Origin: a bacterium
Lineage (GTDB): Bacteria; Planctomycetota; J058; JAJDCP01
NCBI GenBank assembly: GCA_030428695.1
Contig: JAUIEM010000078.1
Span: 1 to 28,704 of the forward strand
Reading direction: 5' to 3'
DNA length: 28,704 nucleotides
Made by a program: the position numbers and the translations under genes. The stretch's first letter is position 1. Every line of letters begins with the position of its first letter. The notes under the pieces were generated by a model. It was not told the DNA's origin and did no database searches. It saw only the letters and a program-made list of their open reading frames with translations. This document shows positions 2-28,587 of this stretch, one piece after another.

Positions 2-691
2 GCCCAGGAGGAGTGGGCGGACAAGCCCTACCCGAACTTCCGCCACCCCGACGGCAAGGCCCGCTTCAAGCTGTGCGAGCAGGACTATGGGGAAGACGGG
101 GCGCTGATCAAGGAGGTGACCGACGCTTTCAAGGCCTACGGCGCCAACCCCGGCCAGGGCCCCTGGCTGTACAAGAACCAGGAGCTGCTGCGGCGCGCCC
201 GCGACCTCGCGTTGACCCCCGAGCTGCCCGACCTCGACTTCTACGACGACCCCGACAAGACCCTCGAGGACGCGATCAGCGAGGACACCTACCCGTTCTG
301 GCTCGGCCTCGGCATCGTCTACGAGCACTTCCACACCAGCAAGACCATCCGCGGCGCGACGACCACGCGCCTCGTGCCCGAGCAGTACGTCGAGGTCAAC
401 GAGGAGGACGCCGCGCGCTGGGAGCTCGAGGACGGCGAGCGCGTGCGGGTCGTCACCCGGCGCGGGAACTACGAGGCCCGGGTCTCGGTCGGCACGACCT
501 CGATCATCCGTCCCGCCCGCAACGAGGTCCCGCCGGGCTACATGTTCAGCCCCTGGAACCTGTCGGTCGCCGACAGCGCCGACCCGAAGAAGAACCGCTG
601 GCTGGTCAACTCGGTCAGCCACCGCGCCTGGGACCCGGTCTCGGGCCAGGCGGACTACAAGAAGATCGCCTGTCGACTCGAGAGGATCTGA
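2..691 (+). CDS. napA: NapA-type periplasmic nitrate reductase, C-terminal fragment
   Basis: This is the C-terminal 229 residues of a molybdopterin oxidoreductase whose start lies before the window; the frame is open from base 2. The visible part resembles the end of NapA. It has a segment starting YPFWLGLGIVYEHFH, then RLVPEQYVEVNEEDA, then a beta-rich molybdopterin-dinucleotide-binding domain (DGERVRVVTRRG), then the closing pattern DPVSGQADYKKIACRLERI, which parallels the DPISKQTDFKKCAVKI type ending of NapA. NapA reduces nitrate to nitrite in the periplasm using a bis-MGD molybdenum centre and one 4Fe-4S cluster; those N-terminal ligands are outside the window. The following napG/napH-like genes support the assignment. 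Another NapA-like member of the DMSO reductase superfamily with a different substrate cannot be excluded from the C terminus alone. Confidence 0.85.
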   Translation, partial: AQEEWADKPYPNFRHPDGKARFKLCEQDYGEDGALIKEVTDAFKAYGANPGQGPWLYKNQELLRRARDLALTPELPDLDFYDDPDKTLEDAISEDTYPFWLGLGIVYEHFHTSKTIRGATTTRLVPEQYVEVNEEDAARWELEDGERVRVVTRRGNYEARVSVGTTSIIRPARNEVPPGYMFSPWNLSVADSADPKKNRWLVNSVSHRAWDPVSGQADYKKIACRLERI

Positions 692-709
692 GCCAGCCGG
701 AGGGGAACT

Positions 710-1363
710 GTGGGGAACAGCCGACGCCAGTTTCTGCGCTCTCTGTGCGGTGGCGCCCTGAGCGTCGCCGGCTGGCTCGCCCTCGGCGGAGCCTGGACGG
801 CGAGCGGCAGCGACGGCCCGAGCGAGGCGCTGCGCCCGCCCGGGGCCCTGCCCGAAGAGGACTTCCTCGCGACCTGCATCCGGTGTGGGCGCTGCGCGGA
901 CGCCTGCCCGAACCGCGCGATCGTCGCCTTCACCGAGGAATCGGGTCGCCATCTCGCCGCGCAGCCGCGCCCGGGGGAGCGCGGCACGCCGGTGATCCTG
1001 CCGCGGCGCCAGGGCTGTATCCTGTGCAACGGGGCCGCAGGGGATGAGCTCCTGTGCGCCGCGGCCTGCCCGAGCGGGGCGCTGCAGCCGGTCAAGAAGA
1101 CCGCCGCCGCGATCCAGGCCCAGGTCGACATGGGCACGGCCGAGGTCGACCGCACGCTGTGCTACTCCTACAACGGCTCCTCCTGCGGCGCCTGCGTCCG
1201 CGCCTGTCCCTTCGAAGGCCAGGCGCTGCGCGCGGGGCTGTGGGAGAAGCCCCTGCTCGACCCCGCGTTGTGCGTCGGCTGCGGCCTGTGTGAGCGGGCC
1301 TGCCTGACCTACCCGCAGGCGATCCGGGTGCGCTCGCGGCGCGCCGAGGAGGCGCCGGCATGA
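710..1363 (+). CDS. napG: NapG/MauM-like Tat-exported ferredoxin, four 4Fe-4S clusters
   Basis: The product is 217 residues. It begins at GTG 710, behind GGAGGGG at 699-705. The N terminus has a twin-arginine motif (SRRQFLRSL, residues 4-12) followed by a hydrophobic stretch (about 13-32), so export by Tat with cofactors already inserted is expected. Sixteen cysteines form four ferredoxin-type sets: C56/59/62/66, C103/106/116/120, C151/159/162/166 and C188/191/194/198. This fits the NapG/MauM family, which passes electrons from membrane-bound NapH to the periplasmic nitrate reductase. The gene lies 18 bases after napA and its stop overlaps the next start by 4 bases. The two middle sets have widened spacing, usual for this family. 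Confidence 0.87.
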   Translation: MGNSRRQFLRSLCGGALSVAGWLALGGAWTASGSDGPSEALRPPGALPEEDFLATCIRCGRCADACPNRAIVAFTEESGRHLAAQPRPGERGTPVILPRRQGCILCNGAAGDELLCAAACPSGALQPVKKTAAAIQAQVDMGTAEVDRTLCYSYNGSSCGACVRACPFEGQALRAGLWEKPLLDPALCVGCGLCERACLTYPQAIRVRSRRAEEAPA

Positions 1364-1965
1364 GCGGACCCTGTGGAAGCGGCGAAGCGATCGACCGGCG
1401 CGGCCTGTTCCGGGCGCTGCTCGGGCGCCTGCGTCCGGCGCCGGCGCCGAGCGTCGCGCGCGCCCTGCCCGGGCAGCGCGGGGCCCTCGGCCTGCTGCGG
1501 CCCCCGGGCGCCGCCGAGGAGGCGCGTTTCCTCGCGCTGTGCGAGCGCTGCGACGACTGCCTCGAGGTGTGCGAGACCGGCTGCATCCGGCTGTTCGGGC
1601 CCGAGGCCGGAGAGCTCGCCGGCACGCCCTACATCCTGCCCGGCGACCGGGCCTGCAACCTGTGCCTGAAGTGCGGGCCCGCCTGCCCGACCGACGCGCT
1701 GCTGCCGCTCGTGACCAAGACCGAGGCGGCGATGGGCCGGGCGCGCGTCGACGAGTCGCGCTGCCTCGCCCACACCGGCGAGGGGATCTGTGGCGACTGC
1801 CACACCCTGTGCCCGCTGCGCAACCGCGCCCTGACCCAGGGCTGGCGGAACCAGCCCTACGTCCAGGACGCCTGCGTCGGCTGCGGGCTGTGTGAGGAGG
1901 CCTGCCCGATGCCCGTGCCCGCGATCGCGGTCACGACCGGACGCCCCCGGAAGGAGGCCGCATGA
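1360..1965 (+). CDS. NapF/NapG-like ferredoxin, four 4Fe-4S clusters, no signal helix
   Basis: A 201-residue iron-sulfur protein starting at ATG 1360, inside the stop of the preceding gene. It has cysteine sets at C61/64/67/71, C99/102/105/109, C135/144/147/151 and C172/175/178/182, enough for four 4Fe-4S clusters. The N terminus carries DRRGLFRALLGRL, resembling the RR-L-RG start of NapF, but no hydrophobic helix follows, so it is probably cytoplasmic. NapF in enterobacteria interacts with NapA in the cytoplasm and may help load its Fe-S cluster; that role is a family inference. The overall layout is close to the gene before it, suggesting an old duplication that gave one exported and one cytoplasmic copy. 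Naming between napF and a second napG is uncertain. Confidence 0.78.
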   Translation: MSGPCGSGEAIDRRGLFRALLGRLRPAPAPSVARALPGQRGALGLLRPPGAAEEARFLALCERCDDCLEVCETGCIRLFGPEAGELAGTPYILPGDRACNLCLKCGPACPTDALLPLVTKTEAAMGRARVDESRCLAHTGEGICGDCHTLCPLRNRALTQGWRNQPYVQDACVGCGLCEEACPMPVPAIAVTTGRPRKEAA

Positions 1966-3008
1966 AGACCCGCGTCAAGAAGCTGCAGCTCCTGCGCCGG
2001 CTCGTCCAGCTCGGTTTCCTCGCGCTCGCCCTCGCCGCGCCGGCCCTCGCCCGCTACACGAACTACCTGATGGCCCGCGAGCTCGACAAGAACATCGAGC
2101 GCTGGGACGGCAGCGCCCAGGGCGAGGCCCTCGAGCTGCTCGACGACGGCCTGCGCAGCCTGCCCGGCGGCGAGAAGGAGCGGGTCGGGAAGATGGTCCG
2201 CGACCGCAAGAACGTGCTCGCGATGGGCACCCACGTGCGCGGGGGCCCGTGGTCGCTGCAGCTCGGCGGGCAGTCCTTCAGCGACCCCCTCGCCGGCGCC
2301 GAGAGCGTGGTCGCCAGCCGACGCCTGCCCTGGGTGCTGGTCGTCGGCCTGGCGCTGCCCGTGCTCCTGACGCTGGTGCTCGGGCGGGTGTTCTGCTCGT
2401 GGTTGTGCCCGGTCGGGCTCTTCCTCGAGCTGAGCGAGAAGCTGCGGGGGGTGCTGCGCTTCCTCGAGCTGCGGCCCCGCAACCTGCGCTTTCCCCGGGC
2501 GAGCAAGTTCTGGCTGCTCGGCCTCGGGCTGACCGCGACGGCGCTGTTCGCGGTGCCGATCCTCGGCGCGATCTACCCGCCGGCGGTGGTCGGCCGCGAG
2601 CTGCACGAGCTGGTGTTCGCCTTCTTCGACCACGCCGAGCTCGGCGAGTTCGGCCCGACCTACTGGCTCTCCGGCCTCGGCTGGGGGAGCGTGATGCTCG
2701 GCGGGATCGCCCTGTTCGAGCTGTTCGTCTCCAAGCGCTGGTGGTGCCGCACCCTGTGCCCGGGCGGGGCGCTGTACGCCCTGCTCGGCGCCCTGCGGCC
2801 GGTGCGCGTCAAGCGCGACCCCGTCGCCTGTACCGGCTGCGGGGAGTGCAACCGGGTGTGCCCGATGGCGCTCCGGCCGATGTCCGACCAGATGGGAATG
2901 GACTGCGACAACTGCGGGCTGTGCCTGTCCTCCTGCGGCGACGATGCCCTGCGCTTCCGCCTGTGGACGCCGAAGCCCGCCGAACGACCCGTGGAGGTGA
3001 CGGTATGA
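1962..3008 (+). CDS. napH: NapH-like membrane quinol dehydrogenase ferredoxin
   Basis: A 348-residue integral membrane protein starting at ATG 1962, overlapping the previous stop by 4 bases. Hydrophobic helices lie near residues 13-30, 122-141, 183-205 and 238-256. Two Cx3CP motifs follow helices (C145-SWL-C149-P and C262-RTL-C266-P), the hallmark of the NapH/NosR/CcoG polyferredoxin family. Two 4Fe-4S sets close the protein: C290/293/296/300 and C315/318/321/325. NapH takes electrons from quinol and hands them to NapG. The loop between the first helix and the second (about residues 31-120) is long and likely periplasmic, longer than in the compact enterobacterial NapH. It belongs to the nap part of the operon. 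Confidence 0.87.
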   Translation: MKTRVKKLQLLRRLVQLGFLALALAAPALARYTNYLMARELDKNIERWDGSAQGEALELLDDGLRSLPGGEKERVGKMVRDRKNVLAMGTHVRGGPWSLQLGGQSFSDPLAGAESVVASRRLPWVLVVGLALPVLLTLVLGRVFCSWLCPVGLFLELSEKLRGVLRFLELRPRNLRFPRASKFWLLGLGLTATALFAVPILGAIYPPAVVGRELHELVFAFFDHAELGEFGPTYWLSGLGWGSVMLGGIALFELFVSKRWWCRTLCPGGALYALLGALRPVRVKRDPVACTGCGECNRVCPMALRPMSDQMGMDCDNCGLCLSSCGDDALRFRLWTPKPAERPVEVTV

Positions 3009-3583
3009 ACGCGCGCCTGGCGCTGCTGCTCGGACTGCTCGCGTTGCCCGTGAGCGCCCATCACATCCTCGGCATCCCGCACTACGCCTATGACGAGGAG
3101 TACCCCCAGACACCGATCCTGACCTACCGCGTCGAGGCGGGGGCCTACGAGGTGTCGATGACCGGCTACCCGGGCGTCCCGAAGCCCGGCGAGCGCTGCG
3201 ATCTGCACGTCGACCTCAAGCACATGCGGGCCGGGACCCCCTTCCCCGGGAAGGTGACGATGACGGTCTTCGAGGACCGCCTGTTCGGCGAGGATCCGGT
3301 GGTCTACGGGCCGATCGAGACCGACGCCGACCTGTCGCTGTTCCGCTTCCATCCGATCTTCGAGGCCGAGGCGAACTACCTGATCCGGGTCGAGTACCAC
3401 GCCGAGGGCGCGCCCTGGATCCTCGACCTGCCGATGGCCGTCGGCACCCCGGGCTCGCCCTGGGTGGTGCTCGCCAGCGTGCTCGGCGGGATGGCGCTGT
3501 TCGCGGTCGTGATCCGCGCGCTGCGCATCAAGCGCGCCCGGCGCCGCCAGACAACCCGCCAGGTCGCGGAGGGCATCGCATGA
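3005..3583 (+). CDS. Exported membrane-anchored protein, histidine-rich N terminus
   Basis: A 192-residue protein starting at ATG 3005, overlapping napH by 4 bases and overlapping the next gene by 4 bases. It has a clear signal peptide (residues 1-18, cleavage likely after PVSA), a mature N terminus beginning HHILGIPHYAY with three histidines in its first eight residues, a beta-rich periplasmic body, and one C-terminal helix (about 156-178) followed by a basic tail (RIKRARRRQ). The shape resembles small FixH/YtkA-like exported proteins found with copper and respiratory genes, but I do not recognise the family with confidence. The exposed histidines could bind a metal; this is a guess from position only. 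Its tight packing between napH and a YHS-polyferredoxin suggests a role in assembling or serving the nearby redox proteins. Confidence 0.75.
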   Translation: MNARLALLLGLLALPVSAHHILGIPHYAYDEEYPQTPILTYRVEAGAYEVSMTGYPGVPKPGERCDLHVDLKHMRAGTPFPGKVTMTVFEDRLFGEDPVVYGPIETDADLSLFRFHPIFEAEANYLIRVEYHAEGAPWILDLPMAVGTPGSPWVVLASVLGGMALFAVVIRALRIKRARRRQTTRQVAEGIA

Positions 3584-5529
3584 AGGCCCGCCTCAACCTC
3601 CTCTGGCCGTGGCTGTGCGCCGTCGGCATCATCGCGATGGTCGCCCTGCCGCGGGTCGTGGAGCCGCCTGCCGAGGCGCCCGTCCAGGAGTCCTGCTGCG
3701 GAACCGAGAGCGGCGGGGCCGAAAACGGCGGGGCCGAGATCGACCTCGTGTGCTCGATGGAGGTCGCCCGTACGATCAGCGCGACCCTCGACGGCAAGGA
3801 CTACTACTTCTGCACCGGGATGTGCCGCGAGGCCTTCCTCGAGAATCCGGCCCCGTACCTCGGGGAGCTGTGCCTGGTCTGCAAGAGCGACGGGAAGCTG
3901 GTGCCGGTCGCCGAGGGCGCGCCGGAGGCGACCTGGCAGGAGAACACCTACCGCTTCTGCGACGAAGAGCACCGCGCCTCGTTCCGCGCCGACGCCGCCG
4001 GCTACTTCCTGCACACGATGTGGGGGATCCCGGGCTGGCTGTACTACGGCAGCATCGCCTTCCTGATGCTGATCTCCTTCGGCGCCCTCGAGCTGCGCTC
4101 GGGGAAGGCCCGGACGGCGCTGCTCGAGGCGCCGCCGCGGCCGCGCTTCGACCTGCTGCGCTGCACCTGGCTGCGCAAGCTCCTCAAGTGGCCGGCCCTG
4201 CGCGCGACCACCCAGGCGGTGTGCGCGGCCTTCTTCCTGCTCATCGTCGCCGCCGGTCTGTTCGGGAGCCAGCTCCCTGGGCGGAACCTCGCGCCGCTGT
4301 TGACCTGGACGGTGTGGTGGTGCGGGCTGGTCCTGCTGATCCTGTTCCTCGGCAAGGCCTGGTGCTACATCTGCCCCTGGGATGGGCTCGCGACCTGGTT
4401 CGAGCGGCTGCGCTTCTACGGCAACAAGCCCGGCCTCAGCCTCGGCCTGAAGTGGCCGCGCGCGATGCGCAACATCTGGCCGGCGAGCCTGCTGTTCATC
4501 GGCCTGACCTGGGTCGAGCTCGGCTTCGGCGTGACCCAGAGCCCGCGGGCGACGGCCTGGATGGCGCTCGTGATGTTCGGCCTGGCCTTCGTCTGCGCCT
4601 TCCTGTTCGAGAAGAAGTCCTTCTGCCGCTACGGCTGCCTGATCGGCCGGATCAGCGGGCTGTACGCCCTGTTCTCGCCGATCGAGGTGCGCGCGACCGA
4701 CCAGAAGGCCTGCCTGAGCTGCAAGACCAAGTCCTGCTACAAGGGCAACGCGGACGGCGAGGCCTGCCCGACCGGCCAGTACCTCGGGCGCATGGCGCAG
4801 AACACCTACTGCATCAGCTGCATGGAGTGCGTCAAGACCTGCGAGAAGGACAACGTCTCGATCAACCTCCGGCCCTGGGGCGAAGACCTGATCCAGCACG
4901 CGAAGCCGCGCTCCGACGAGGCCTACCTCGCGCTCCTGATGCTCGCGCTGACAGGCTTCCACGGGTTGACGATGACCAAGGTGTGGCGCGACCTGACCGC
5001 GTCGCTGTCCGCCGAGCTCGGGCAGACCCTCGCCTTCTCGGCCGGCATGGTCGCGATCATCGCCCTGCCGATCGCCGCCTACGCCGGGCTGGTCTGGCTC
5101 GGGCTGAAGCTGGCCGGCGGCAAGGTCGACGGGCGCGAGTACTTCATCCGCTACGCCTACGCCCTCCTGCCGATCGCCCTGTTCTACCACCTGGCCCACA
5201 ACGCCGAGCACCTGCTGATGGAGGGCCAGAAGCTGATCGTGCTTTTGTCCGACCCCTTCGGCTGGAACTGGAACCTGCTCGGCACCGCCGACTGGCGCCC
5301 GGCGCCCCTGGTCGACCTGCCGACCCTGTGGCTGATCCAGGTCGTGCTCGTGATGGTCGGCCACCTGTACAGCCTGTGGGTCGCCCGCAAGACCGCCGGC
5401 GCCCTGTTCTCCGACCGGCGCTCGGCGCTGAAGAGCCAGCTGCCGATGCTCGCCGCGATGATCCTGTTCAGCCTGCTCAGCCTGTGGCTGCTCAAGCAGC
5501 CGATGGAGATGCGCACCTCGGCGATGTAG
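3580..5529 (+). CDS. Twin-YHS-like domain NapH/CcoG-like membrane polyferredoxin
   Basis: A 649-residue protein starting at ATG 3580. After one N-terminal helix (8-24) and a CC pair (39-40), two YHS-type metal-binding domains follow: C58-SM with YYFC78-TGMC82-REAF, then C98-LVC101 with YRFC127-DEEH131-RASF. Next come a helix (about 152-170) and a NapH-like core: helices near 211-230 and 240-260, C262-YIC265-P, a helix pair near 300-342, and C349-RYGC353. Two cysteine-rich sets follow at C378/381/386/396 and C411/414/417/421. The last third holds several more helices (about 443-460, 485-512, 528-540, 580-600, 630-645). YHS domains occur in copper/heavy-metal sensors and transporters. Joined to an electron-transfer membrane core, they may sense or deliver metal; this is inference. 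Stop at 5529 is 21 bases before the next start. Confidence 0.8.
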   Translation: MKARLNLLWPWLCAVGIIAMVALPRVVEPPAEAPVQESCCGTESGGAENGGAEIDLVCSMEVARTISATLDGKDYYFCTGMCREAFLENPAPYLGELCLVCKSDGKLVPVAEGAPEATWQENTYRFCDEEHRASFRADAAGYFLHTMWGIPGWLYYGSIAFLMLISFGALELRSGKARTALLEAPPRPRFDLLRCTWLRKLLKWPALRATTQAVCAAFFLLIVAAGLFGSQLPGRNLAPLLTWTVWWCGLVLLILFLGKAWCYICPWDGLATWFERLRFYGNKPGLSLGLKWPRAMRNIWPASLLFIGLTWVELGFGVTQSPRATAWMALVMFGLAFVCAFLFEKKSFCRYGCLIGRISGLYALFSPIEVRATDQKACLSCKTKSCYKGNADGEACPTGQYLGRMAQNTYCISCMECVKTCEKDNVSINLRPWGEDLIQHAKPRSDEAYLALLMLALTGFHGLTMTKVWRDLTASLSAELGQTLAFSAGMVAIIALPIAAYAGLVWLGLKLAGGKVDGREYFIRYAYALLPIALFYHLAHNAEHLLMEGQKLIVLLSDPFGWNWNLLGTADWRPAPLVDLPTLWLIQVVLVMVGHLYSLWVARKTAGALFSDRRSALKSQLPMLAAMILFSLLSLWLLKQPMEMRTSAM

Positions 5530-5550
5530 CCGGGGAAAAGCGGAGGAACC

Positions 5551-7476
5551 GTGACCCACGCCGACCTGTACAACCCGCCCCTGGACCCGGCGCGCCTCGC
5601 GATCCCGGACCAGGGCTACTGGGACGCGCAGATCAAGTGCCAGCAGGCCTGCCCGGTCAACACCGACGCCCGGGGCTACGTGCGCGCGATCGCGGACGGG
5701 GACGACGAGCGCGCCTACCTGATCGCCCGCGGCCCGAACCCGCTCGCCTCGCTGTGCGGCCGGGTGTGCGGCGCGCCCTGCGAGTCGGCCTGCCGGCGCG
5801 GCAGCATCGACGCGCCGATCGCGATCCGGGCCCTCAAGCGCTACGTCTGCGAGCGCTTCGGACCGGAGTCGCGCGACGACGGCGGCGCGGGCCTGGTCGA
5901 CTTCCTCAAGCAGGCCGCGGCCCGCCATCCGGACAACGCCAACCGCCGCCAGAACGAGCTGCTGCCCCTGTTGCAGGCCCTGACCGCCGGACGCGTCCCG
6001 CGGGTAGAGGGGCGCTCGGTCGGCATCATCGGCTCCGGACCGGCGGGCCTGGCGGCGGCCCACGACCTCGCCCTGTTCGGCGTCGCCGTCACGATCTACG
6101 AGATGGAGTCGGTGCTCGCGGGCATGCTCGCCGTCGGGATCCCCGAGTACCGCCTGCCGCGGAAGGTGATCGAGGCCGAGGTCGCCGCGATCCTCGCCCT
6201 CGGGGTCGAGGCGCGCACCTCGGTCGAGGTCGGCCGCGACATCAGCTTCGCCGCCGTGCGCGAGCAGCACGACGCGGTGGTCGTCGCGGTCGGGGCGAAG
6301 CGCTCGCGGGCCCTGCCGATCCCGGGGGCCGGGCTCGAGGGCGTGCTCGGCGGCGTCGAGTTCCTGCGCGAGGTCGCGCTCGACCTGCCGCACGGCGTCG
6401 GCCGCGAGGTCGTCGTGATCGGCGGCGGCAACGTCGCCTACGACGTCGGCCGCACGGTCTTGCGCCAGATCTCCATCGACGCCGCCCGCACCGCCAAACG
6501 CGCGGCGGGAGAAGGGGGCCGCGTGACCCTGGTGTCGCTCGAGAGCCTCGAGGAGATGCCCGCCGACGACATCGAGATCATCGAGGGCGACGAGGAGGGG
6601 GTGATCCGGCGCAACAGCCTCGGCCCGGTCGAGATCCTCGGGGATGCCGACGGGAAGGTGCGCGCGGTGCGCTTCCAGCGCTGCCTGCGGGTGTTCGACG
6701 AGAACCGCCGCTTCGCCCCGCTATTCGACGAAGAGGACCGGGTCGACATCCCGTGCGACACGGTGCTGTTCGCGATCGGCCAGCGCGCGGAGATCGGCTT
6801 CCTCGACGGCGTCGAGGGCCTCGAGCGCAGCGGCCGCGGGCTGATCCAGTGCGACCCGGAGAGCGGCGCGACCTCGCTGCCCGACGTGTTCATCGCCGGC
6901 GACCTCGCCTACGGGCCGAAGCTGATGATCCACGCGGTCGCCTCGGGCAAGGCTGTGGCGCGGGCGCTCTACAGCTCCCTGACCGGGAACCGCCTGCGCG
7001 CCGAGGACACCGAGCTGCACTTCCCGCTGCCGACCTACCACCGGGAGCCGGCCTACGAGAAGCGGCTGCGCTGCGACCTGCCGACCGCGCCCGCCCTCGA
7101 CCGCAGCCGCTCCCAGCGCCTGCTGGTCGAGCGCCGGCTCGAGGAGAAGAGCGCGCGGGAAGAGGCCGGACGCTGCCTCGACTGCGGGGTCAACACCATC
7201 TTCGACGGCAGCCGCTGCGTGCTGTGCGGCGGCTGCGTCGAGGTGTGTCCGGAGCAGTGCCTGCGGATCGTGCCCCTGACCGACCTGATCAGCCGCGAGG
7301 AGGTCGCGCAGCTCGCCCGTGAGCAGGGACTGCAGGCGGCGGAGGCCTCGGCGATCGTCAAGGACGAGACCGCCTGCATCCGCTGCGCCCTGTGCGCGGA
7401 GCGCTGCCCGACCGGGGCGATCACGATGGAGCGCTACAGCTCCGCGCGCTCCTGGTGCACGGAGGGCGCGCGATGA
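5551..7476 (+). CDS. GltD-like FAD/NAD(P)-binding oxidoreductase with Fe-S domains
   Basis: A 641-residue cytoplasmic protein starting at GTG 5551 behind GGAGG. The N-terminal 110 residues carry a cysteine-rich Fer4_20-type domain (C30, C34, C69, C73, C77, C81) as in the small subunit of glutamate synthase and related enzymes. A dinucleotide-binding motif for FAD follows (GIIGSGPAGLAAA, about 158-170), then a second Rossmann motif (VVVIGGGNVAYDVGR, near 290-304) for NAD(P), and the FAD-closing motif PDVFIAGDLAYG (near 445). Two C-terminal 4Fe-4S sets (CVLCGGCVEVC and CIRCALCAERC) finish it. Such proteins move electrons between NAD(P)H, flavin and Fe-S partners. In this operon it could connect the cytoplasmic pool to the ferredoxin-like proteins; the partner is unknown. 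It is not glutamate synthase: no large subunit is present. Confidence 0.85.
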   Translation: MTHADLYNPPLDPARLAIPDQGYWDAQIKCQQACPVNTDARGYVRAIADGDDERAYLIARGPNPLASLCGRVCGAPCESACRRGSIDAPIAIRALKRYVCERFGPESRDDGGAGLVDFLKQAAARHPDNANRRQNELLPLLQALTAGRVPRVEGRSVGIIGSGPAGLAAAHDLALFGVAVTIYEMESVLAGMLAVGIPEYRLPRKVIEAEVAAILALGVEARTSVEVGRDISFAAVREQHDAVVVAVGAKRSRALPIPGAGLEGVLGGVEFLREVALDLPHGVGREVVVIGGGNVAYDVGRTVLRQISIDAARTAKRAAGEGGRVTLVSLESLEEMPADDIEIIEGDEEGVIRRNSLGPVEILGDADGKVRAVRFQRCLRVFDENRRFAPLFDEEDRVDIPCDTVLFAIGQRAEIGFLDGVEGLERSGRGLIQCDPESGATSLPDVFIAGDLAYGPKLMIHAVASGKAVARALYSSLTGNRLRAEDTELHFPLPTYHREPAYEKRLRCDLPTAPALDRSRSQRLLVERRLEEKSAREEAGRCLDCGVNTIFDGSRCVLCGGCVEVCPEQCLRIVPLTDLISREEVAQLAREQGLQAAEASAIVKDETACIRCALCAERCPTGAITMERYSSARSWCTEGAR

Positions 7477-8723
7477 GATCCGGAGGAACATGCGCGCGCA
7501 TCCTGCCCTTGCTGCTCGCCCTGTGCTCGCTCGCCGCGGCCCAGCGCCTCGCGTGGCACACGAGCTACAAGGAGGGGCGGCGGGAGGCGGAAGAGACCGG
7601 CAAGCCGCTGCTGATCTCCTTCCGCTGCGTGCCGTGACTGTCGTGCGGCGCCTTCGATGCGCAGGTTGTGCATCCCCGTCCCGACGCGCCCCACGGCGCC
7701 CTGCTGGAAGAGTATGTCCGCGTCCGGATCACCGACCTGACCGGGGTCGACCTCGGCCTGTTCGAGTTCGACGGCCACAACGCCGTGTACTACTTCGTGC
7801 TCAACGCCGAGGAGCAGATCTACCTGCGCTACGGCGGACGCGACGCGCGCGGCCCGGACCGCTACCTCGACCTCGAGAGCTTCGCCCTGGCCCTCGAGCT
7901 CGGGCTCGCCGAGCACGCCGCCTGGCAGCGCGGGGAGCGGCCGGGACCGCCGCGACCCGCGCCGCGCTTCCCGCGCGATGTGCCGCTGGTCCAGGAGCGC
8001 ATCATCACCCCCGGCCGCTGCGTCGAGTGCCACATCGTCGCCGACTACGCGCTCCAGGCCAGCGAGCGGGAGGGGCCGGGCGAGCGGGTGCGCACGATGT
8101 TCCGCTGCCCGGACATCCTGCGCCTCGGCCTCGCCCTCGACGTGCCGCGCGGGCTCGTGCTCGCGCAGGCCACGGGGCCGGCGGCGGAGGCGGGGCTGCA
8201 GCCGGGCGACCTGATCCGTCGCTTTGCCGGCCGGCGAGTGCTGACCTTCGCCGACCTGCAGCACGTCTACGATCGGGTCCCGCGCGACGCCGAGACGGTC
8301 GAGCTCGAGGCGCTCCGCGGGGAAGAGACGCTCGCCTTTCGCGTCGAGCTGCCTCCGGACTGGTGGGCGAGCGACCTGTTCCACCGCTATTGGAGCGTCG
8401 AGCCGCTGGTGTACTTCGCGAACCGCGCGCTGACGCCCGCGGAGAAGGAGCAGCTCGGGCTCGATCCGGACGGCTTCGCGAGCGAGCTCACCGAGGTCCG
8501 GCCCGGCGCGCGCTCGCTCGGCGTCCACGCGCTCGAGGTCGGGGACATCCTGTTCGCGGTCGACGGGGCGACGAGCGATCCGTTGACCCACGACCTCCGG
8601 CTGCACATCAAGCTGCGCAAGGTCGCCGGCGACACCCTCGAGCTGCGCCTGCTGCGCGACGGCGAGCCGCGGACCGAGCGCTTCGCCAGCGAGCGCTGGA
8701 CCTACCGCAAGGAATCGGAGTGA
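7473..8723 (+). CDS. Selenoprotein: thioredoxin-like UxxC, heme c CxxCH and PDZ domain
   Basis: Read through an in-frame TGA at 7635-7637, this gene encodes 416 residues with selenocysteine as residue 55. The start is ATG 7473, behind GGAGG at 7461-7465 and overlapping the previous stop; it gives a good signal peptide (ARILPLLLALCSLAAA). A thioredoxin-like stretch follows (ETGKPLLISFRCVP-U-LSC), so the TGA falls on the first redox position of U55-x-x-C58. Coding quality is seamless on both sides: the same frame resumes with GAFDAQVVHP and stays open to 8723. Later come a heme-binding C183-VEC-H187 and a PDZ-like domain (about 225-300, with AAEAGLQPGDLIRRFAG), then perhaps a second PDZ-like segment (about 330-400). 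A family named Trx7/PDZ (seleno)protein exists in annotation, as I recall it, chiefly in Planctomycetes. A sequencing error (TGC to TGA) is the main alternative. Confidence 0.85.
7656..7674 (+). promoter_or_regulatory. Bacterial SECIS hairpin
   Basis: GATGCGCAGGTTGTGCATC folds into an 8-bp stem (7656-7663 with 7667-7674, one G-U pair) closed by the loop GGU. It begins 18 nt after the in-frame TGA. Bacterial SECIS elements sit just downstream of UGA inside the coding region and carry a G at the first or second loop position, so this fits. The core GCAGGU matches the loop region of the Escherichia coli fdhF element as I remember it, although the bulged U of fdhF is absent. It would recruit SelB-GTP-Sec-tRNA and is translated as DAQVVH. 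Confidence 0.8.
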
Positions 8724-8725
8724 GC

Positions 8726-9253
8726 ATGACTGCACAGAGCGACACGCAACCCGGCCGCCTCGAACCGACGCCCGTCCCGCGCCGCGACTTCCTCGGCATC
8801 GCCGGCCTGTTCAGCGCGGGCCTGGCGATCTGCGCCGCGCTGCTCGGCATGCTGCGGCTGCCGAAGCCGCGCGTCACCCCCGACGCCTCGAGCCGCTTCC
8901 GCATCGGCCGGGCGGAGGACTTCCCGCCGGGCAGCGACACCGAGGTCCCGGGCCGCAACGTGCGGATCCTCTCGACGGCCGAGGGCCTCGCCGCGATGTC
9001 CCTGATCTGCACGCACCTCGGCTGCATCGCCGGGCGCGCGGAGGAGGGCTTCCACTGCCCCTGCCACGGCTCGCTGTTCGACGACGCCGGGGCGGTGCTC
9101 GGCGGGCCCGCTCCGCGCGCGCTGAAGTGGTTCAAGCTCAGCCAGACGGTCGACGGCACCCTGGTCGTCGACAGCGCGGTCGAGGTTCCGCCGGAGACGC
9201 GTTACGAGCCGGTCACCAGCAGCGCGGACGCCGGTCCGCGGCGCGCGGTCTGA
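8726..9253 (+). CDS. Rieske 2Fe-2S protein of a cytochrome bc-type complex
   Basis: A 175-residue protein starting at ATG 8726, two bases after the preceding stop. It has a Tat-like N terminus (RRDFLGIAG, residues 19-27) and one membrane helix (about 25-43) that would remain as an anchor. The Rieske cluster-binding boxes are complete: C95-T-H97-LG-C100 and C111-P-C113-H114-GS, with C95/H97/C111/H114 as cluster ligands and C100-C113 as the expected disulfide. The length matches b6f-type Rieske proteins. It stands directly before the cytochrome b gene, so the two should form the quinol-oxidising core of a bc/b6f-like complex, passing electrons to the multiheme cytochrome c encoded after them. 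Confidence 0.93.
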   Translation: MTAQSDTQPGRLEPTPVPRRDFLGIAGLFSAGLAICAALLGMLRLPKPRVTPDASSRFRIGRAEDFPPGSDTEVPGRNVRILSTAEGLAAMSLICTHLGCIAGRAEEGFHCPCHGSLFDDAGAVLGGPAPRALKWFKLSQTVDGTLVVDSAVEVPPETRYEPVTSSADAGPRRAV

Positions 9254-9263
9254 GGAGGTCTCC

Positions 9264-10805
9264 ATGTCGGCGCTGAAGGACTTCGGACAGAACCTGAAGA
9301 ACCTGCCCCGGCTGGTCTGGCGGTCGATCTTCCGCCACGGCCCGCCGACCTCCGACCGGGCGCGTTCGCAGACCGTGTTCCACAACTTCTTCCTGCACGT
9401 CCACGCGACCCGGGTGCATCCGCACTCCCTGCGCGTGACGACGACCTGGGGCCTCGGCATCGCCCTGCTCGCGGAGCTGTTGATCCTGACCGTGACCGGG
9501 ATCCTGCTGATGGTCTACTACGCGCCCTCGACCGAGCTCGCCTACGACTCGATCAAGGACCTGCAGTTCGTCGTGCCGACCGGGCGCCTGATCCGCAACG
9601 TGCACCGCTGGACCGCGCACATGATGGTCGCGACGGTGATCCTGCACATGGCGCGCGTCTTCTACACGGCCGCCTACAAGGGCGCGCGGCAGTTCAACTG
9701 GCTGATCGGCATGGTCCTGTTCGTGCTGACTCTCGGCATGTCCTTCACCGGCTACCTGCTGCCCTGGGACCAGCTCGCGTACTGGGCGGTGACGATCGGC
9801 GCGAACATCGCCGCCTCGCCGAACGAGCTGGCCGAGGCCCTCTCCCTGCCGGACTGGCTGTACCTCGGCGACCTGCAGAAGGAGCTGCTGCTCGGCTCGC
9901 GCTCGGTCGGCCAGGGGGCCCTGACGCGCTTCTACCTGCTGCACGTGATGGTGCTGCCGCTGATGATGGCGGGCGCGATCGGCGTCCACATCTGGCGCAT
10001 CCGCAAGGACGGCGGGATGGCGCGCCCCGAAGGCGGACGCAGCCTGGCCGGCAAGGGCGTCGACGTCGACAAGCCCGCGCCGACGACGCCGGCCGAGGCC
10101 CCGAAGAAGAGCTTCGGGCTGATGGCCCTGGTCGCCGGCCGCACGCCGCACACCGGCCGCAACCCCGAGGTCACCCTGCCGGTCTGGCCGTACCTGCTGC
10201 GGGCCGAGCTGTTGATCTTCATGCTCGTGTTCCTGATCGCCCTCCTGCTCGGGGTGTGCTTCGACGCGCCGCTCAAGGAGCTCGCCAACCCGGGCGTGCC
10301 GGAGAACCCGGCGAAGGCGCCGTGGTACTTCCTCGGGCTGCAGGAGATCGTGTCGTACTCGGCCTTCGTCGGGGGCATCCTGATCCCCGGCATCGTCGTG
10401 CTCGGGCTCGCGCTGATCCCCTACCTCGACCGCGAGCCGGAGCCCTCCGGGGTGTGGTTCAGCGGCGCCCGGGGCAAGCGCGTCAGCCTCCAGTCGGTGG
10501 CCTTCGGTGCGCTGTGCGCGGTGCTGGCGGTCGCGATCCCGGTCCGGTTCGGCTGGTTGCGGAACTGGTACCCGAACATCGCCCAGCTCTGGGTGATGCT
10601 GTTCAACCCGGGCACCCTGCTGACCGCCGCGTACGCCTTGTGGTCGCTGTGGATCATGAAGCGCACGGACTCGACGCGGCTCGGCGCGATCGCCCTGTTC
10701 ACCTGTTTCCTGGTCGGGTTCGTGATCCTGACCTTCGTCGGAACCTACTTCCGCGGTCCGAACTGGGACTTCTACTGGAGCCCGGCGGACTGGCCGAGCC
10801 ACTGA
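9264..10805 (+). CDS. Cytochrome b, b6 and subunit IV fused
   Basis: A 513-residue membrane protein from ATG 9264, with GAGGAGG just upstream. The N-terminal part matches cytochrome b6: helix A (61-84), helix B with heme ligands H114 and H128, helix C with GYLLPWDQ (163-170), helix D with H227 and H242. The helix D ligands are 15 apart, as in cytochrome b6, not 14 as in mitochondrial cytochrome b. A hydrophilic linker (about 246-305) leads to a subunit IV-like part with further helices (about 312-332, 368-388, 412-430, 450-470, 480-500). The Qo-site motif PEWY is replaced by APWY (352-355). The protein oxidises quinol with the Rieske partner. No cysteine sits at the position used by the extra covalent heme of b6f. 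Confidence 0.92.
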   Translation: MSALKDFGQNLKNLPRLVWRSIFRHGPPTSDRARSQTVFHNFFLHVHATRVHPHSLRVTTTWGLGIALLAELLILTVTGILLMVYYAPSTELAYDSIKDLQFVVPTGRLIRNVHRWTAHMMVATVILHMARVFYTAAYKGARQFNWLIGMVLFVLTLGMSFTGYLLPWDQLAYWAVTIGANIAASPNELAEALSLPDWLYLGDLQKELLLGSRSVGQGALTRFYLLHVMVLPLMMAGAIGVHIWRIRKDGGMARPEGGRSLAGKGVDVDKPAPTTPAEAPKKSFGLMALVAGRTPHTGRNPEVTLPVWPYLLRAELLIFMLVFLIALLLGVCFDAPLKELANPGVPENPAKAPWYFLGLQEIVSYSAFVGGILIPGIVVLGLALIPYLDREPEPSGVWFSGARGKRVSLQSVAFGALCAVLAVAIPVRFGWLRNWYPNIAQLWVMLFNPGTLLTAAYALWSLWIMKRTDSTRLGAIALFTCFLVGFVILTFVGTYFRGPNWDFYWSPADWPSH

Positions 10806-10815
10806 GGAGGGCAGC

Positions 10816-13500
10816 ATGCCGAGCGCGCAAGCCGAACGCCAGGACCGCCGCGTCAAGTGGGCCCTGCTGCTCGTCAGCCTGGGCTGCCTGGTCCTGCTCG
10901 CCATCGCCTTCGTGGCCGAGAACATCCACGCGGAGTGGATCGTCGTGCGGGAAGGCTACGCCGCGCGGCTCGCGGAGAAGGCCGACGACGACCGGGGTCG
11001 CGCCCTCGCCGAGGACTTCGAGGTGCGCATCGTCCAGCACATCGCCCCGGCCTACGGCACGACCGACCGCTGCGTGACCTGCCACGCCGGGGTCGACGAC
11101 CCGCGCATGAGCGACGTCCCCCAGCCGTACACCGCGCACCCCGGGCGCTGGGTCGAGCTGCACCCGCCCGAGCAGCTCGGCTGCACGGTGTGCCACGGGG
11201 GCCAGGGCCTCGCGACGACCAGCGCGGACGCGCACGGCGAGGCGCCGTTCTGGGACCATCCGCTGCTCCCGCGCAGCTACCTGTACAGCAGCTGCGCGCA
11301 GTGCCACGGCGAAGATCGGCTGTTCGGCCCGGAGGGGCTGATCGCGTCGGGGCTGGCCGGGGAATCCTCCGAGCCGGCGGCCCTGCTCGCTCTCGGGCGC
11401 AGCCTGGCGCGCAGCAAGGGTTGCCTCGGCTGCCACAAGCTCGGGGGCGTCGGGGGAATGCTCGGGCCGGCTCTCGACCTCGAGGGCGAGAAGACCGCCC
11501 ACGACTTCGACTTCTCCTCCTACCCGGAGGCCCACACCCCCGCGGAGTGGCTGCGGGCGCACTTCCTCGAGCCCGACGCGGTCTCGCCCGGGACGGTGAT
11601 GCCGGCGACCGCGACCGACCCCCAGCAGGCCGACGCCCTGACCGCCTACATGCTCTCCCTGCGCACGGTGCGCGAGCGGGTCGGGGTCGGGAAGGTCCAC
11701 GAGCAGGTCTCGCTGCTCGACGAGGGGGCCGAGCTGTACGCCCTGTACTGCTCCGCCTGCCACGGCGCGGACGGGGTGATGGGCGAGGTGCCGGACATCT
11801 GGACGCCGTCGCTGCGCAACGCGGACGCCCAGGCGGTGGCGGGGGACGACTTCTACCGGCACATCGTGTCCCGGGGCAAGAGCGGCACCGACATGCCCGC
11901 CTGGCACGAGGATGCCGGCGGCCTGCGCCGCGCTGAGATCGACGCCCTGGTCGCCTACCTGCGCGGCTGGCAGCACGAGGGCGCCGAGACCGCGATCGCT
12001 TCGGCGACACGCGGGGACGTGCGGCGGGGCCGCGCCTACTACCAGGGGCTGTGCGCGAACTGCCACGGCTACAGCGGCGAGGGCGGGCTCGGCAACGCCC
12101 TGCGCCCCGACACCTTCCTCGCCCTCGCGCCGGACGACTTCCTCGCCCGGACCATCGTCGAGGGCCGTCCGGGCACGGCGATGCCCGCCTGGAAACACCT
12201 GTCGACCCAGGCGGTCTCCGACCTGCTCGCCTACCTGCGCAGCTGGCAGCCCGTGCCCGCCCCGTGGGAGGAGGTCCAGGACGCGCTCGCGCGCGCCGAC
12301 CCGGAGGAGCTCGTCCGCCACGGCGCCGCGCTCTACCGCGGCAGCTGCGCGAGCTGCCACGGCGCCGCGGGCGAGGGGGCCGTCGGCCCGAGCCTGGCGG
12401 GCGCGAACATCCTCGGCAGCGTCGACGACCTGTTCCTGTACCGGACCCTGCGCGAGGGCCGGCCCGGCACGGCGATGCCCGCCTGGCCGCAGCTCTCCGC
12501 GCGGAAGCTCGCCGGGCTGATCGCCTACCTGCGGAGCTGGAGCCCGCAGGCCGCCCCGCTCGCGCCGGTCACCCTGCGCGGCGACGCGATGGTCGGGGAG
12601 GTGCACTACCTGCGCTCCTGCGCGGGCTGCCACGGGGCCGAGGGCGAGGGCGGGATGGGCCCGCAGCTCGTCAACCCGGTGTTCCTCGACACGGTCAGCG
12701 ACGCCGCCCTGCTCGAGTGGATCGGGCGCGGGCGCGACGGCACGGCGATGCTCGGCTTCCTCCCCGAAGAGCACGGAGTCACGCGGCTCGAGCGCGAGGA
12801 CATCGCGAACATCGTCGCCTGGCTGCGCGCGACCGGCAGCGGGCGTCCCGCGCCAGTGCGGCGCGGGGTCCAGGGCGACGCGGTGCTCGGCGGCGAGCTG
12901 TACGCCTCGAACTGCGCGGCCTGCCACGGGCCGCAGGGGGAAGGCGCCTCGGGGCCGCAGCTCAACAACCGCGGCTTCCTGCACGCCGCCTCGGACGGCT
13001 TCCTGCTCGGCACCCTCGCGATGGGCCGGACCGGGACCGCGATGCTGCCGATGGTCAAGGGCAGCGGAGGCCTCGTCCAGATCGAGCCCGAGCGGCTGCA
13101 CGACATCGTCGCCTTCCTGCGCACCTGGGAGGAGCCGGAGGGCTGGCGCACGCCGCGCTCCCTCGCCGAGCAGAGCGCGCCGGCCATCGAGGCGGGCCGC
13201 ACCCTGTTCGCGCAGCTCTGCTCGTCGTGCCACGGGCCGAACGGCAAGGGCAGCCAGGACGGGGAGGACTACTTCGCCCCCGCCCTGAACAACCCCGAGT
13301 TTCTCGCGGCAGCGAGCGACGGCTTCCTGGTCGCGACCATCGCCCGCGGCCGGCAGGGCACCCCGATGCGCGCCTTCGGCGCAGGCGCGGGAGGGCTCGC
13401 CTCCTTGCGGGCGGAGGAGATCGCCGACATCGTCTCGTTCATCCGTTCCTGGGCGGCCCCGAACACCGCCGATAGCCAACCCCGAGGAGGAAACCCGTGA
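10816..13500 (+). CDS. Membrane-anchored decaheme cytochrome c
   Basis: An 894-residue protein starting at ATG 10816 behind GAGGAGG. One N-terminal helix (15-34) anchors it; the rest should be periplasmic. Ten CxxCH heme motifs start at C86, C123, C160, C203, C312, C413, C511, C602, C700 and C802. The first three form a compact triheme section; the fourth (CLGCHKLGG, with candidate sixth ligand M262) and the last six look like class I cytochrome c domains spaced about 90-110 residues, most with a GTxMP or GTAM-type methionine (M360, M456, M554, M645, M743, M851). It follows Rieske and cytochrome b, so it probably replaces cytochrome f/c1 and extends as a wire to periplasmic acceptors, possibly the nitrate reductase. 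The stop overlaps the hemerythrin start by 4 bases. Confidence 0.92.
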   Translation: MPSAQAERQDRRVKWALLLVSLGCLVLLAIAFVAENIHAEWIVVREGYAARLAEKADDDRGRALAEDFEVRIVQHIAPAYGTTDRCVTCHAGVDDPRMSDVPQPYTAHPGRWVELHPPEQLGCTVCHGGQGLATTSADAHGEAPFWDHPLLPRSYLYSSCAQCHGEDRLFGPEGLIASGLAGESSEPAALLALGRSLARSKGCLGCHKLGGVGGMLGPALDLEGEKTAHDFDFSSYPEAHTPAEWLRAHFLEPDAVSPGTVMPATATDPQQADALTAYMLSLRTVRERVGVGKVHEQVSLLDEGAELYALYCSACHGADGVMGEVPDIWTPSLRNADAQAVAGDDFYRHIVSRGKSGTDMPAWHEDAGGLRRAEIDALVAYLRGWQHEGAETAIASATRGDVRRGRAYYQGLCANCHGYSGEGGLGNALRPDTFLALAPDDFLARTIVEGRPGTAMPAWKHLSTQAVSDLLAYLRSWQPVPAPWEEVQDALARADPEELVRHGAALYRGSCASCHGAAGEGAVGPSLAGANILGSVDDLFLYRTLREGRPGTAMPAWPQLSARKLAGLIAYLRSWSPQAAPLAPVTLRGDAMVGEVHYLRSCAGCHGAEGEGGMGPQLVNPVFLDTVSDAALLEWIGRGRDGTAMLGFLPEEHGVTRLEREDIANIVAWLRATGSGRPAPVRRGVQGDAVLGGELYASNCAACHGPQGEGASGPQLNNRGFLHAASDGFLLGTLAMGRTGTAMLPMVKGSGGLVQIEPERLHDIVAFLRTWEEPEGWRTPRSLAEQSAPAIEAGRTLFAQLCSSCHGPNGKGSQDGEDYFAPALNNPEFLAAASDGFLVATIARGRQGTPMRAFGAGAGGLASLRAEEIADIVSFIRSWAAPNTADSQPRGGNP

Positions 13501-14081
13501 GCGTCACCGCTGTCCTGCACCGTGAGCACCGGCAGATCGAGCGCGTGCTCGCCTGCCTGGAGGCCGCCGCCGACGATGCCCGGACCCGCGACCGCGCCGA
13601 CCGCGAGAGCTTCGGCGAGCTGCTCGAGCTGCTCGTCAGCTACGCCGACGCCTGGCACCACGGCAAGGAGGAGGACGTCCTCTTCCCCGCGCTGACCCGG
13701 GCGGGGATGCCGGCGCAACACGGGCCGATCGCCGTCATGCTCCACGAGCACGGGCTCGGCCGGGGGTTCATCGCGACGATGCGCGACCAGCTCCCGGGGG
13801 CAGCGGATGGCGACGTGCCGGCGCTCGAGGCCTTGACCGGGGCGGCGCGCGACTACGTCAGCCTGCTGCGGGCGCACATCGGCAAGGAGGACGGCGTCCT
13901 GTTCCCGATGGCCGAGCGCTTCCTCGATGCCGAGGCCCGGCAGGAGGTGCTCGACGGCTTCGCCGCGCAGCTCGACCCCGACCAGGAGCGCGCCTTCCTC
14001 GCCCGGGTCGACGCGCTGTGCGAGCGCTGGCAGATCACGGACGTGCCGGTGACCGGGCGCCCGCCCTGCGCCGGCGGTTGA
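13497..14081 (+). CDS. Hemerythrin-like HHE domain protein
   Basis: A 194-residue soluble protein starting at GTG 13497, overlapping the cytochrome stop, behind GAGGAGG. It contains the helical hemerythrin ligand pattern: H8/H11 in LHREHRQIE, H54-H55 with E59 in WHHGKEEDVLFP, H83-E-H85, and H127 with E131 in HIGKEDGVLFP. These are typical diiron ligands of the hemerythrin HHE family, which binds oxygen or nitric oxide or repairs Fe-S clusters. No signal peptide is seen, so it acts in the cytoplasm. As the last gene of a nitrate/cytochrome operon full of Fe-S proteins, a role in nitric-oxide or oxygen protection is plausible but inferred. Confidence 0.88.
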   Translation: MSVTAVLHREHRQIERVLACLEAAADDARTRDRADRESFGELLELLVSYADAWHHGKEEDVLFPALTRAGMPAQHGPIAVMLHEHGLGRGFIATMRDQLPGAADGDVPALEALTGAARDYVSLLRAHIGKEDGVLFPMAERFLDAEARQEVLDGFAAQLDPDQERAFLARVDALCERWQITDVPVTGRPPCAGG

Positions 14082-16974: not shown

Positions 16975-16997
16975 GCAGCTCGAGGGGTTAAAAGGTG

Positions 16998-17031
16998 CGG
17001 TTCCCGGAGGAGAACGGTTCCCGGAGGAGAA
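16998..17031 (+). repeat. Perfect 17-bp tandem duplication in the MoxR leader
   Basis: CGGTTCCCGGAGGAGAA occurs twice back to back (16998-17014 and 17015-17031). Each copy carries a GGAGGAG ribosome-binding-like site, and the real site AGAGGAGG lies just after, five bases before GTG 17046. Confidence 0.85.
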
Positions 17032-17045
17032 GAGAGGAGGCTGCC

Positions 17046-18028
<983 letters not shown>

Positions 18029-18032
<4 letters not shown>

Positions 18033-21291: not shown

Positions 21292-21299
21292 GAGGAGCG

Positions 21300-28483: not shown

Positions 28484-28516
28484 GTCCTCGGTCGGTTCGT
28501 GGGGAGACGGCATCCG

Positions 28517-28546
28517 AGTGTATCCGCTCACGGCGCGGCCTGCCAA
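28517..28546 (-). promoter_or_regulatory. Candidate sigma70-type promoter for the kinase gene
   Basis: On the minus strand TTGGCA (28541-28546) and TACACT (28517-28522) are separated by 18 bases. Five of six and four of six positions match the consensus. Transcription would begin near 28510, about 27 bases before ATG 28483. Confidence 0.5.
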
Positions 28547-28587
28547 ATTTTTGCGCGCCCACCCTGCGTCGCCGGCTCACAGTCCCT

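What the first reader, a model, noticed from the sequence alone, without database searches (positions are those of the whole stretch)
7635..7674. In-frame UGA with a SECIS hairpin: a UxxC selenoprotein
The TGA at 7635-7637 interrupts a single continuous frame (7473-8723) at the first redox position of a thioredoxin-like motif, giving FRCVP-U-LSC. Eighteen bases later GATGCGCAGGTTGTGCATC forms a perfect 8-bp stem with a GGU loop, the form expected of a bacterial SECIS. Two independent signals agree. A standard gene caller would report a 54-residue fragment and a separate downstream protein lacking its redox site and signal peptide.
Basis: partly seen in the sequence, partly recalled or inferred. 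Interest (0 to 1): 0.88.

Follow-up and report, generated by a model that had tools for sequence, protein, structure and literature searches.

The report
Selenocysteine gene of a known family
An in-frame stop codon in this bacterial gene is almost certainly read as the rare amino acid selenocysteine; the gene belongs to a little-studied family, already catalogued by computer, of secreted redox proteins that also seem to carry a haem.

Summary
TGA 7635-7637 lies inside one open frame, 7473-8723, followed by an 8-bp hairpin with a GGU loop. The product scores 369.5 bits (cut-off 300) against NCBIfam NF041199, 'Trx7/PDZ domain-containing (seleno)protein', a published predicted family. So this is a new member of a known kind.

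One correction: the motif is C52-V-P-U55-L-S-C58. Sec sits at the second redox position (CxxU); position 52 is Cys or Sec in all 103 genes aligned, while C58 varies.

New evidence: 87 Planctomycetota genes have TGA at the same codon. Their hairpins covary and are mostly missing from 14 Cys genes. selB occurs in 36 of 40 genomes with TGA forms, but in 2 of 27 without. Of 119 other listed homologues, 115 start after the Sec site; 4 are full length with Cys there.

Two features that I saw in none of the paper passages read: a CxxCH haem-c motif (C183-H187) kept in every homologue examined, and UxxU in 58 of 88 Sec genes, two UGAs before one hairpin.

No whole genome is held for the window, so its own sel genes could not be checked.

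The parts
7473..8723 (+). Whole selenoprotein gene, 416 residues with Sec55; its ATG overlaps the stop of the upstream gene (ATGA), and the next gene starts 2 bases after its stop
7473..7544 (+). Probable signal peptide (residues 1-24, ...LLLALCSLAAAQ); judged by eye, no predictor run
   Evidence: sequence; residues 1-9 have pLDDT < 50 in the model
7545..7931 (+). Thioredoxin-fold domain (residues about 25-153), Pfam Thioredoxin_7
7626..7646 (+). Redox motif C52-V-P-U55-L-S-C58
7635..7637 (+). In-frame UGA read as Sec (residue 55)
7656..7674 (+). Bacterial SECIS hairpin: 8-bp stem, GGU loop at 7664-7666
8019..8033 (+). CxxCH (C183-V-E-C-H187), predicted site of a covalent c-type haem
   Evidence: 120 of 120 listed homologues, the window's own included, contain C..CH; 103 of 103 aligned genes at this column
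8100..8720 (+). Two PDZ-like domains (about residues 210-301 and 309-415)
   Evidence: Pfam PF13180, two stretches; structural matches

Best explanation
The gene encodes a secreted selenoprotein of the known Trx7/PDZ family (NF041199). When the ribosome reaches UGA 7635-7637, SelB carrying Sec-tRNA is held on the hairpin 7656-7674 and UGA is read as Sec instead of stop. The 416-residue product has a signal peptide, a thioredoxin-fold domain whose redox pair is C52/U55 with C58 close by, a CxxCH site expected to hold a c-type haem, and two PDZ domains. Shown by computation: the continuous frame, Sec/Cys exchange, covarying hairpin, link to selB and tRNA-Sec in relatives, domains, invariant CxxCH. 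Inferred: export, haem attachment, and a role as a periplasmic selenol/thiol redox protein passing electrons between the Trx pair and the haem, with PDZ domains binding a partner.
For: NF041199 369.5 bits over residues 27-400, cut-off 300. Four full-length homologues have Cys at residue 55. Of 119 other listed homologues (120 of 158 hits are listed), 115 would start at residue 56 or later, as expected if their gene callers also met a stop at codon 55. 88 distinct genes with TGA at this codon (87 Planctomycetota plus the window): stem of at least 5 bp at the fixed place in 78 of 88, against 1 of 14 Cys genes; at least 4 bp in 84 of 88 against 5 of 14. Covariation: 82.1% of cells paired and 7 of 8 pairs with double changes, against 26.0-51.3% paired in six slid controls; Cys genes 18.8%. 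selB in 36 of 40 genomes with TGA forms and 2 of 27 whose listed matches have no in-frame stop (Fisher p 4e-12). tRNA-Sec at 60 bits or more in 33 of 40 and 2 of 27 (p 5e-10). Synonymous recoding 6 of 20,000. Model mean pLDDT 88.1.
Against: The window's own Sec machinery cannot be checked. Four of the 40 Sec genomes (G238, G147, G190, G282) lack a selB hit at E 1e-60; three of these have a tRNA-Sec of 60 bits or more, G190 has neither. Of the 27 genomes without in-frame stops I read the motif as Cys in 14; in the other 13 Cys is inferred. 4 of 88 Sec genes lack a stem of 4 bp at the fixed place. Single pairs break in up to 40 of 88 (the loop-closing A-U), partly because many have a 4-5 nt loop. 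In the Cys set, a slide of -1, which leaves only a 2-nt loop, pairs 59.8% of cells, so pairing percentages in short coding alignments can be high by composition. Whole-stretch folding energy is ordinary. Only one relative with the window's CVECH signature (L001) was available as DNA.
Confidence: 0.95

Rival explanations
1. The TGA is a real stop: the gene is a pseudogene or makes a short 54-residue peptide, and the downstream PDZ protein is made from its own start (GTG 7668).
For: The database does hold a 351-aa protein here (P0002).
Against: TGA recurs at this one codon in 88 distinct genes, and the other aligned genes have Cys there; its occurrence tracks selB. The hairpin covaries. The downstream part alone lacks the export signal that a CxxCH/PDZ protein would need (inference). 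The search for members split frames at TAA and TAG; I did not look separately for members with those stops at this codon.
Confidence: 0.02
2. The TGA is a sequencing or assembly error for TGC.
For: The reads were not available to me.
Against: The window has the SECIS hairpin that Cys genes mostly lack; 87 other genes show TGA at the same codon.
Confidence: 0.01
3. The organism reads UGA as another amino acid (Trp or Gly code), so no Sec is involved.
For: None in the window beyond the TGA itself.
Against: Seven of the eight other operon frames scanned end in TGA and none of the eight has an internal one; homologues have Cys, not Trp or Gly, at residue 55; a SECIS is present.
Confidence: 0.01
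4. Sec is inserted, but the CxxCH is not a haem site: it may be a structural disulfide or metal site.
For: No Pfam cytochrome-c domain is matched; no clear sixth ligand: H148 is kept in 39 of 40 rows of A2 but only 89 of 103 wider rows.
Against: Both Cys and the His are invariant in 103 of 103 rows and a C..CH occurs in 120 of 120 listed homologues; the protein appears to be exported, where CxxCH normally takes haem (established knowledge).
Confidence: 0.3

Closest known systems
Trx7/PDZ domain-containing (seleno)protein, NCBIfam NF041199 (PMC13188914 Table 1: CxxU, one Sec; PMC9312934 table: 'PDZ domain-containing protein', pfam13899, CxxU)
   Same: Score above the curated cut-off, Thioredoxin_7 plus PDZ, CxxU, SECIS just downstream.
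   Different: Nothing that takes it out of the family. The window gene sits in a nitrate-reductase-like/cytochrome b operon; I found no sign that this link is conserved. The CxxCH, and the UxxU form of relatives, are not mentioned in the passages I read.
'Putative secreted serine protease MucD' selenoprotein of the Global Ocean Sampling set (PMC2398784, 2008: 2 Sec sequences, 12 Cys homologues, CxxU; [quoted passage not shown]
   Same: The 2026 review cites the 2008 paper (its ref. 61) for Trx7/PDZ, and MucD is the 2008 entry that fits; that the two are one family is my inference, no sequences were compared.
   Different: The serine-protease label does not fit the window protein: only PDZ and Thioredoxin_7, no protease domain, are matched.
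3f9u, C-terminal domain of a putative exported cytochrome C biogenesis-related protein, Bacteroides fragilis
   Different: Covers the Trx domain only; 17% identity.
MamE/MamP magnetosome proteins (PDZ plus CxxCH 'magnetochrome'; the latter recalled)
   Different: Scores 26.1 and 19.4 bits against cut-offs of 800 and 300; the matches lie over the PDZ part, outside the CxxCH; no Trx domain or Sec known there (recalled).

Membership tests
NF041199 Trx7/PDZ (seleno)protein | Whole-protein score over the curated cut-off (300 bits) | tested here: met
   369.5 bits, residues 27-400, with Sec written as Cys
NF041199 Trx7/PDZ (seleno)protein | Thioredoxin_7 domain followed by PDZ | tested here: met
   PF13899 37.0 bits (cut-off 27) and PF13180 44.9 bits (cut-off 27)
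NF041199 Trx7/PDZ (seleno)protein | CxxU motif with Sec/Cys exchange at U | tested here: met
   C52-V-P-U55; Cys in P0014, P0015, P0021, P0029 and in 14 distinct Planctomycetota genes
Bacterial SECIS (model as given in PMC13188914 Fig. 2 legend) | 3-9 nt apical loop, 4-16 bp stem, G in the first two loop positions, 16-37 nt from UGA to loop, MFE at or below -7.5 kcal/mol | tested here: met
   3-nt loop GGU, 8 bp, 26 nt, -9.1 kcal/mol; bSECISearch itself was not run
Bacterial selenoprotein | selA, selB, selC, selD in the same genome | not testable with these tools
   No whole genome is held for the window; no tRNA gene in the window
Bacterial selenoprotein | Sec form of the family co-occurs with selB and tRNA-Sec in relatives | tested here: met
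   selB 36 of 40 against 2 of 27; tRNA-Sec at 60 bits or more 33 of 40 against 2 of 27; selA and selD were not searched
MucD/DegP serine protease | Trypsin-like protease domain | tested here: not met
   Only PDZ families and Thioredoxin_7 are matched at E up to 1; TIGR02037 31 bits, cut-off 416.2, best stretch 231-293 in the PDZ part
c-type cytochrome | CxxCH haem-attachment motif | tested here: met
   C183-V-E-C-H187, invariant Cys, Cys and His in 103 of 103 aligned genes
c-type cytochrome | Recognised cytochrome c domain | tested here: not met
   No cytochrome family among Pfam hits at E up to 1
c-type cytochrome | Covalently bound haem with axial ligands | not testable with these tools
   Needs a purified protein; H148 is only a candidate ligand
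Magnetosome MamE/MamP | Score over the NCBIfam cut-off | tested here: not met
   26.1 of 800 and 19.4 of 300 bits

The most novel reading that the evidence does not exclude
The whole Trx7/PDZ family is a group of exported haem-c selenoproteins in which a Sec-bearing thioredoxin pair exchanges electrons with a covalent haem in the same chain; in many Planctomycetota the pair is UxxU, and one SECIS hairpin (about 26 and 35 nt from the two UGAs, both inside the published range) decodes two UGAs three codons apart. The window protein is a single-Sec member of this group.
Probability: 0.5. Interest if true: 0.62.

Novelty: new member of a known kind. Interest (0 to 1): 0.42.

Why it matters
Standard gene calling cuts this protein at its active site: 115 of 119 other listed homologues begin after it, so in that database the family is nearly always stored without its redox centre and export signal. 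The result gives the family covariation-level support for its SECIS, a genome-level link to the Sec machinery, and a testable biochemical guess (a haem beside a Sec thioredoxin centre) in place of the old 'serine protease' label.

Tried and rejected
Operon context as a clue to function. The gene lies in a cluster: NapA-like C-terminus / NapG-like x2 / NapH-like / small membrane protein (by eye) / large membrane Fe-S protein, NosR-like by eye, with a YHS match below cut-off / FAD-FeS oxidoreductase / selenoprotein / Rieske / cytochrome b / ten-CxxCH cytochrome / hemerythrin. I found no sign that it travels with the family: eleven window neighbour proteins gave 2 weak tblastn hits (E 1e-8 and 2e-7) over 81 Planctomycetota loci, several of them short contigs (at E 1e-8 gave none). 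None of the longest-contig lengths in the listed selenoprotein homologues recurs in the FAD-FeS or cytochrome b lists (120 rows each of about 8,000 hits) except the window's own 28704; I compared these by eye. Those two lists share many lengths with each other (for example 115329, 53469, 135391). I therefore do not use the operon to assign a substrate.

Rfam (gathering scores) and ARAGORN found nothing in the window. A PDB sequence search with the Trx part alone found nothing, and the 47 chains matched by the profile lie over its PDZ positions; so the match of C52/U55 to a Trx CxxC pair rests on family alignment and the published motif, not on residue-level superposition. Foldseek and VIA lists are filled mostly by PDZ proteins; no haem-domain match was shown, which excludes nothing.

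The tRNA-Sec cut at 60 bits was chosen after seeing the list, because the Rfam search also rings on other tRNAs (14 of 14 controls at E 0.001; over the gathering score in 5 of 14 controls and 48 of 80 genomes). Genomes without the family: selB in 7 of 13, tRNA-Sec at 60 bits or more in 8 of 13.

Rows dropped: 13 short loci fetched again in longer form (116 hits became 103 rows) and one identical Cys row. Not every match was read: I used its 30 automatic loci, 80 fetched regions and L001. The selB and tRNA-Sec tests used 80 of the 392 genomes: 40 with TGA forms (all read), 27 whose matches have no in-frame stop (14 read as Cys, 13 not read), 13 without the family.

Full report
What is in the sequence. 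The frame 7473-8723 is open but for TGA at 7635-7637 (codon 55) and its terminal TGA. GATGCGCA-GGT-TGTGCATC at 7656-7674 forms 8 pairs, one of them G-U, with the GGU loop 26 nt after the TGA; alone it folds at -9.1 kcal/mol, z -3.58. A random synonymous recoding of the next 23 codons with the operon's codon usage reaches this score and geometry in 6 of 20,000 trials, and 8 bp in 13. In a gene with 94% G or C at third positions, three of the six codons 7656-7673 end in T, as if the RNA and not the codon preference had set them. Longer stretches fold no better than shuffles, so energy alone would not have proved it.

Sec/Cys exchange. One search lists 120 of 158 homologues. Of the 119 other than the window's own, 4 are full length and all have Cys at residue 55 (P0014, P0015, P0021, P0029); the other 115 would start at residue 56 or later, the mark left by gene callers that met a stop. 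In a Pirellulaceae genome the relative L001 (46% identical) has TGA at the same codon.

Test across Planctomycetota. NF041199 matched 124 of 392 genomes drawn from the phylum of L001's genome (110 over the cut-off; 0 of 14 control genomes). I aligned 103 genes, the window and L001 included: residue 55 is Sec or Cys in 103 of 103, and so is residue 52. After removal of one duplicate, 88 distinct genes have Sec at 55 and 14 have Cys. Of the 88, 30 have Cys at 52 (the window among them) and 58 have a second TGA there, UxxU.

SECIS covariation. In the ungapped alignment of the 88 Sec genes the window's 8-pair stem is formed in 82.1% of cells, 7 of 8 pairs show changes on both sides, and the covariation score is 0.278; slid controls give 26.0-51.3% and 0.064-0.153. 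Sequences are related, so the shuffle counts are not probabilities. The 14 Cys genes give 18.8% for the same stem, though 59.8% when slid by -1, which would leave a 2-nt loop. A stem of at least 5 bp at the fixed place occurs in 78 of 88 Sec and 1 of 14 Cys genes; at least 4 bp in 84 of 88 and 5 of 14. In UxxU genes the same hairpin lies about 26 nt from the second UGA and so about 35 nt from the first, both within the 16-37 nt of the published model (PMC13188914, Fig. 2 legend, seen as a passage).

Sec machinery. selB over the cut-off: 36 of 40 genomes with a TGA form, 2 of 27 whose listed matches have no in-frame stop (14 of these read as Cys), 7 of 13 without the family. tRNA-Sec at 60 bits or more: 33 of 40, 2 of 27 (the same G307 and G308 that have selB) and 8 of 13. 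Only G190 among the 40 lacks both. selA and selD were not searched. The window's own genome is not held.

The redox motif. The window reads C52-V-P-U55-L-S-C58. Residue 52 is Cys or Sec in 103 of 103; residue 58 is Cys in 92 of 103 but Gly in 14 of the 20 rows of alignment A2 that reach this column. The literature labels the family CxxU. I take C52/U55 as the pair and C58 as an accessory residue.

A haem motif. C183-V-E-C-H187 is a CxxCH. C..CH is present in 120 of 120 listed homologues and at this column in 103 of 103 aligned genes; both sets include the window and may overlap further. No Pfam cytochrome domain is matched and the sixth ligand is open; H148 is a candidate (39 of 40 rows; 89 of 103). 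[quoted passage not shown] CxxCH may be what those are (inference).

Literature. PMC2398784 (2008; passages) reported 'putative secreted serine protease MucD', 2 Sec and 12 Cys sequences, CxxU; 'cxxch' occurs 0 times in its main text. PMC13188914 (passages and table rows) cites that paper for Trx7/PDZ, NF041199, CxxU, one Sec; PMC9312934 (table passages) and PMC9402790 (passages) list the same kind of protein. That MucD and Trx7/PDZ are one family is my inference from these. Searches: selenoprotein + PDZ domain + thioredoxin-like + metagenom, 3 papers; selenoproteome + novel selenoprotein + bacterial SECIS + Acidobacteria, 0; NF041199, 1; Trx7 + PDZ + selenoprotein, 1; selenoprotein + planctomyc + UxxU, 0; selenocysteine + planctomycet + selenoproteome, 6; global ocean sampling + selenoprotein + PDZ, 3; selenoprotein + MucD + thioredoxin, 2. 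PMC4807772 on Planctomycetes genomes has no 'PDZ' in its main text (passages); its supplement was not open to me. So within open-licence papers and the passages seen, I found no mention of the UxxU form or the haem motif in this family.

Verdict. A real UGA-encoded selenoprotein with a SECIS; a new member of a known predicted family. Its function is inferred: an exported selenol/thiol redox protein, probably haem-bearing, whose partner is unknown.

Noticed in passing
for example L041:7058-7111, L044, L045, L108, L110, L112, L114, L116; 58 of 88 distinct Sec genes: Double-Sec UxxU form of the Trx7/PDZ family in Planctomycetota: both codons 52 and 55 are TGA with one downstream hairpin. The 2026 review lists one Sec for this family.
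   Followed up: partly
window 8019-8033: CxxCH haem-c motif in the selenoprotein, kept in every homologue examined.
   Followed up: partly
window 2-14081: Operon with a NapA-like C-terminus, two NapG-like and one NapH-like proteins, a large membrane protein judged NosR-like by eye with a YHS match below cut-off, a 641-aa FAD-FeS oxidoreductase, Rieske, cytochrome b, a cytochrome with ten CxxCH and a hemerythrin; listed FAD-FeS and cytochrome b homologues share many contig lengths with each other but none with the selenoprotein list beyond the window (by eye).
   Followed up: partly
L041, L084, L086, L093: Two copies of the family gene on one stretch: two Sec copies in L041, L084 and L086; a Cys copy beside a Sec copy in L093.
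   Followed up: no
window 16995-18029 and 20418-23192: A MoxR-like AAA ATPase (PF07726; PF20030 also matches) and an open frame with a von Willebrand factor A domain.
   Followed up: no
window 27230-28576, minus strand: Response-regulator receiver domain together with a protein kinase domain in one open frame.
   Followed up: no
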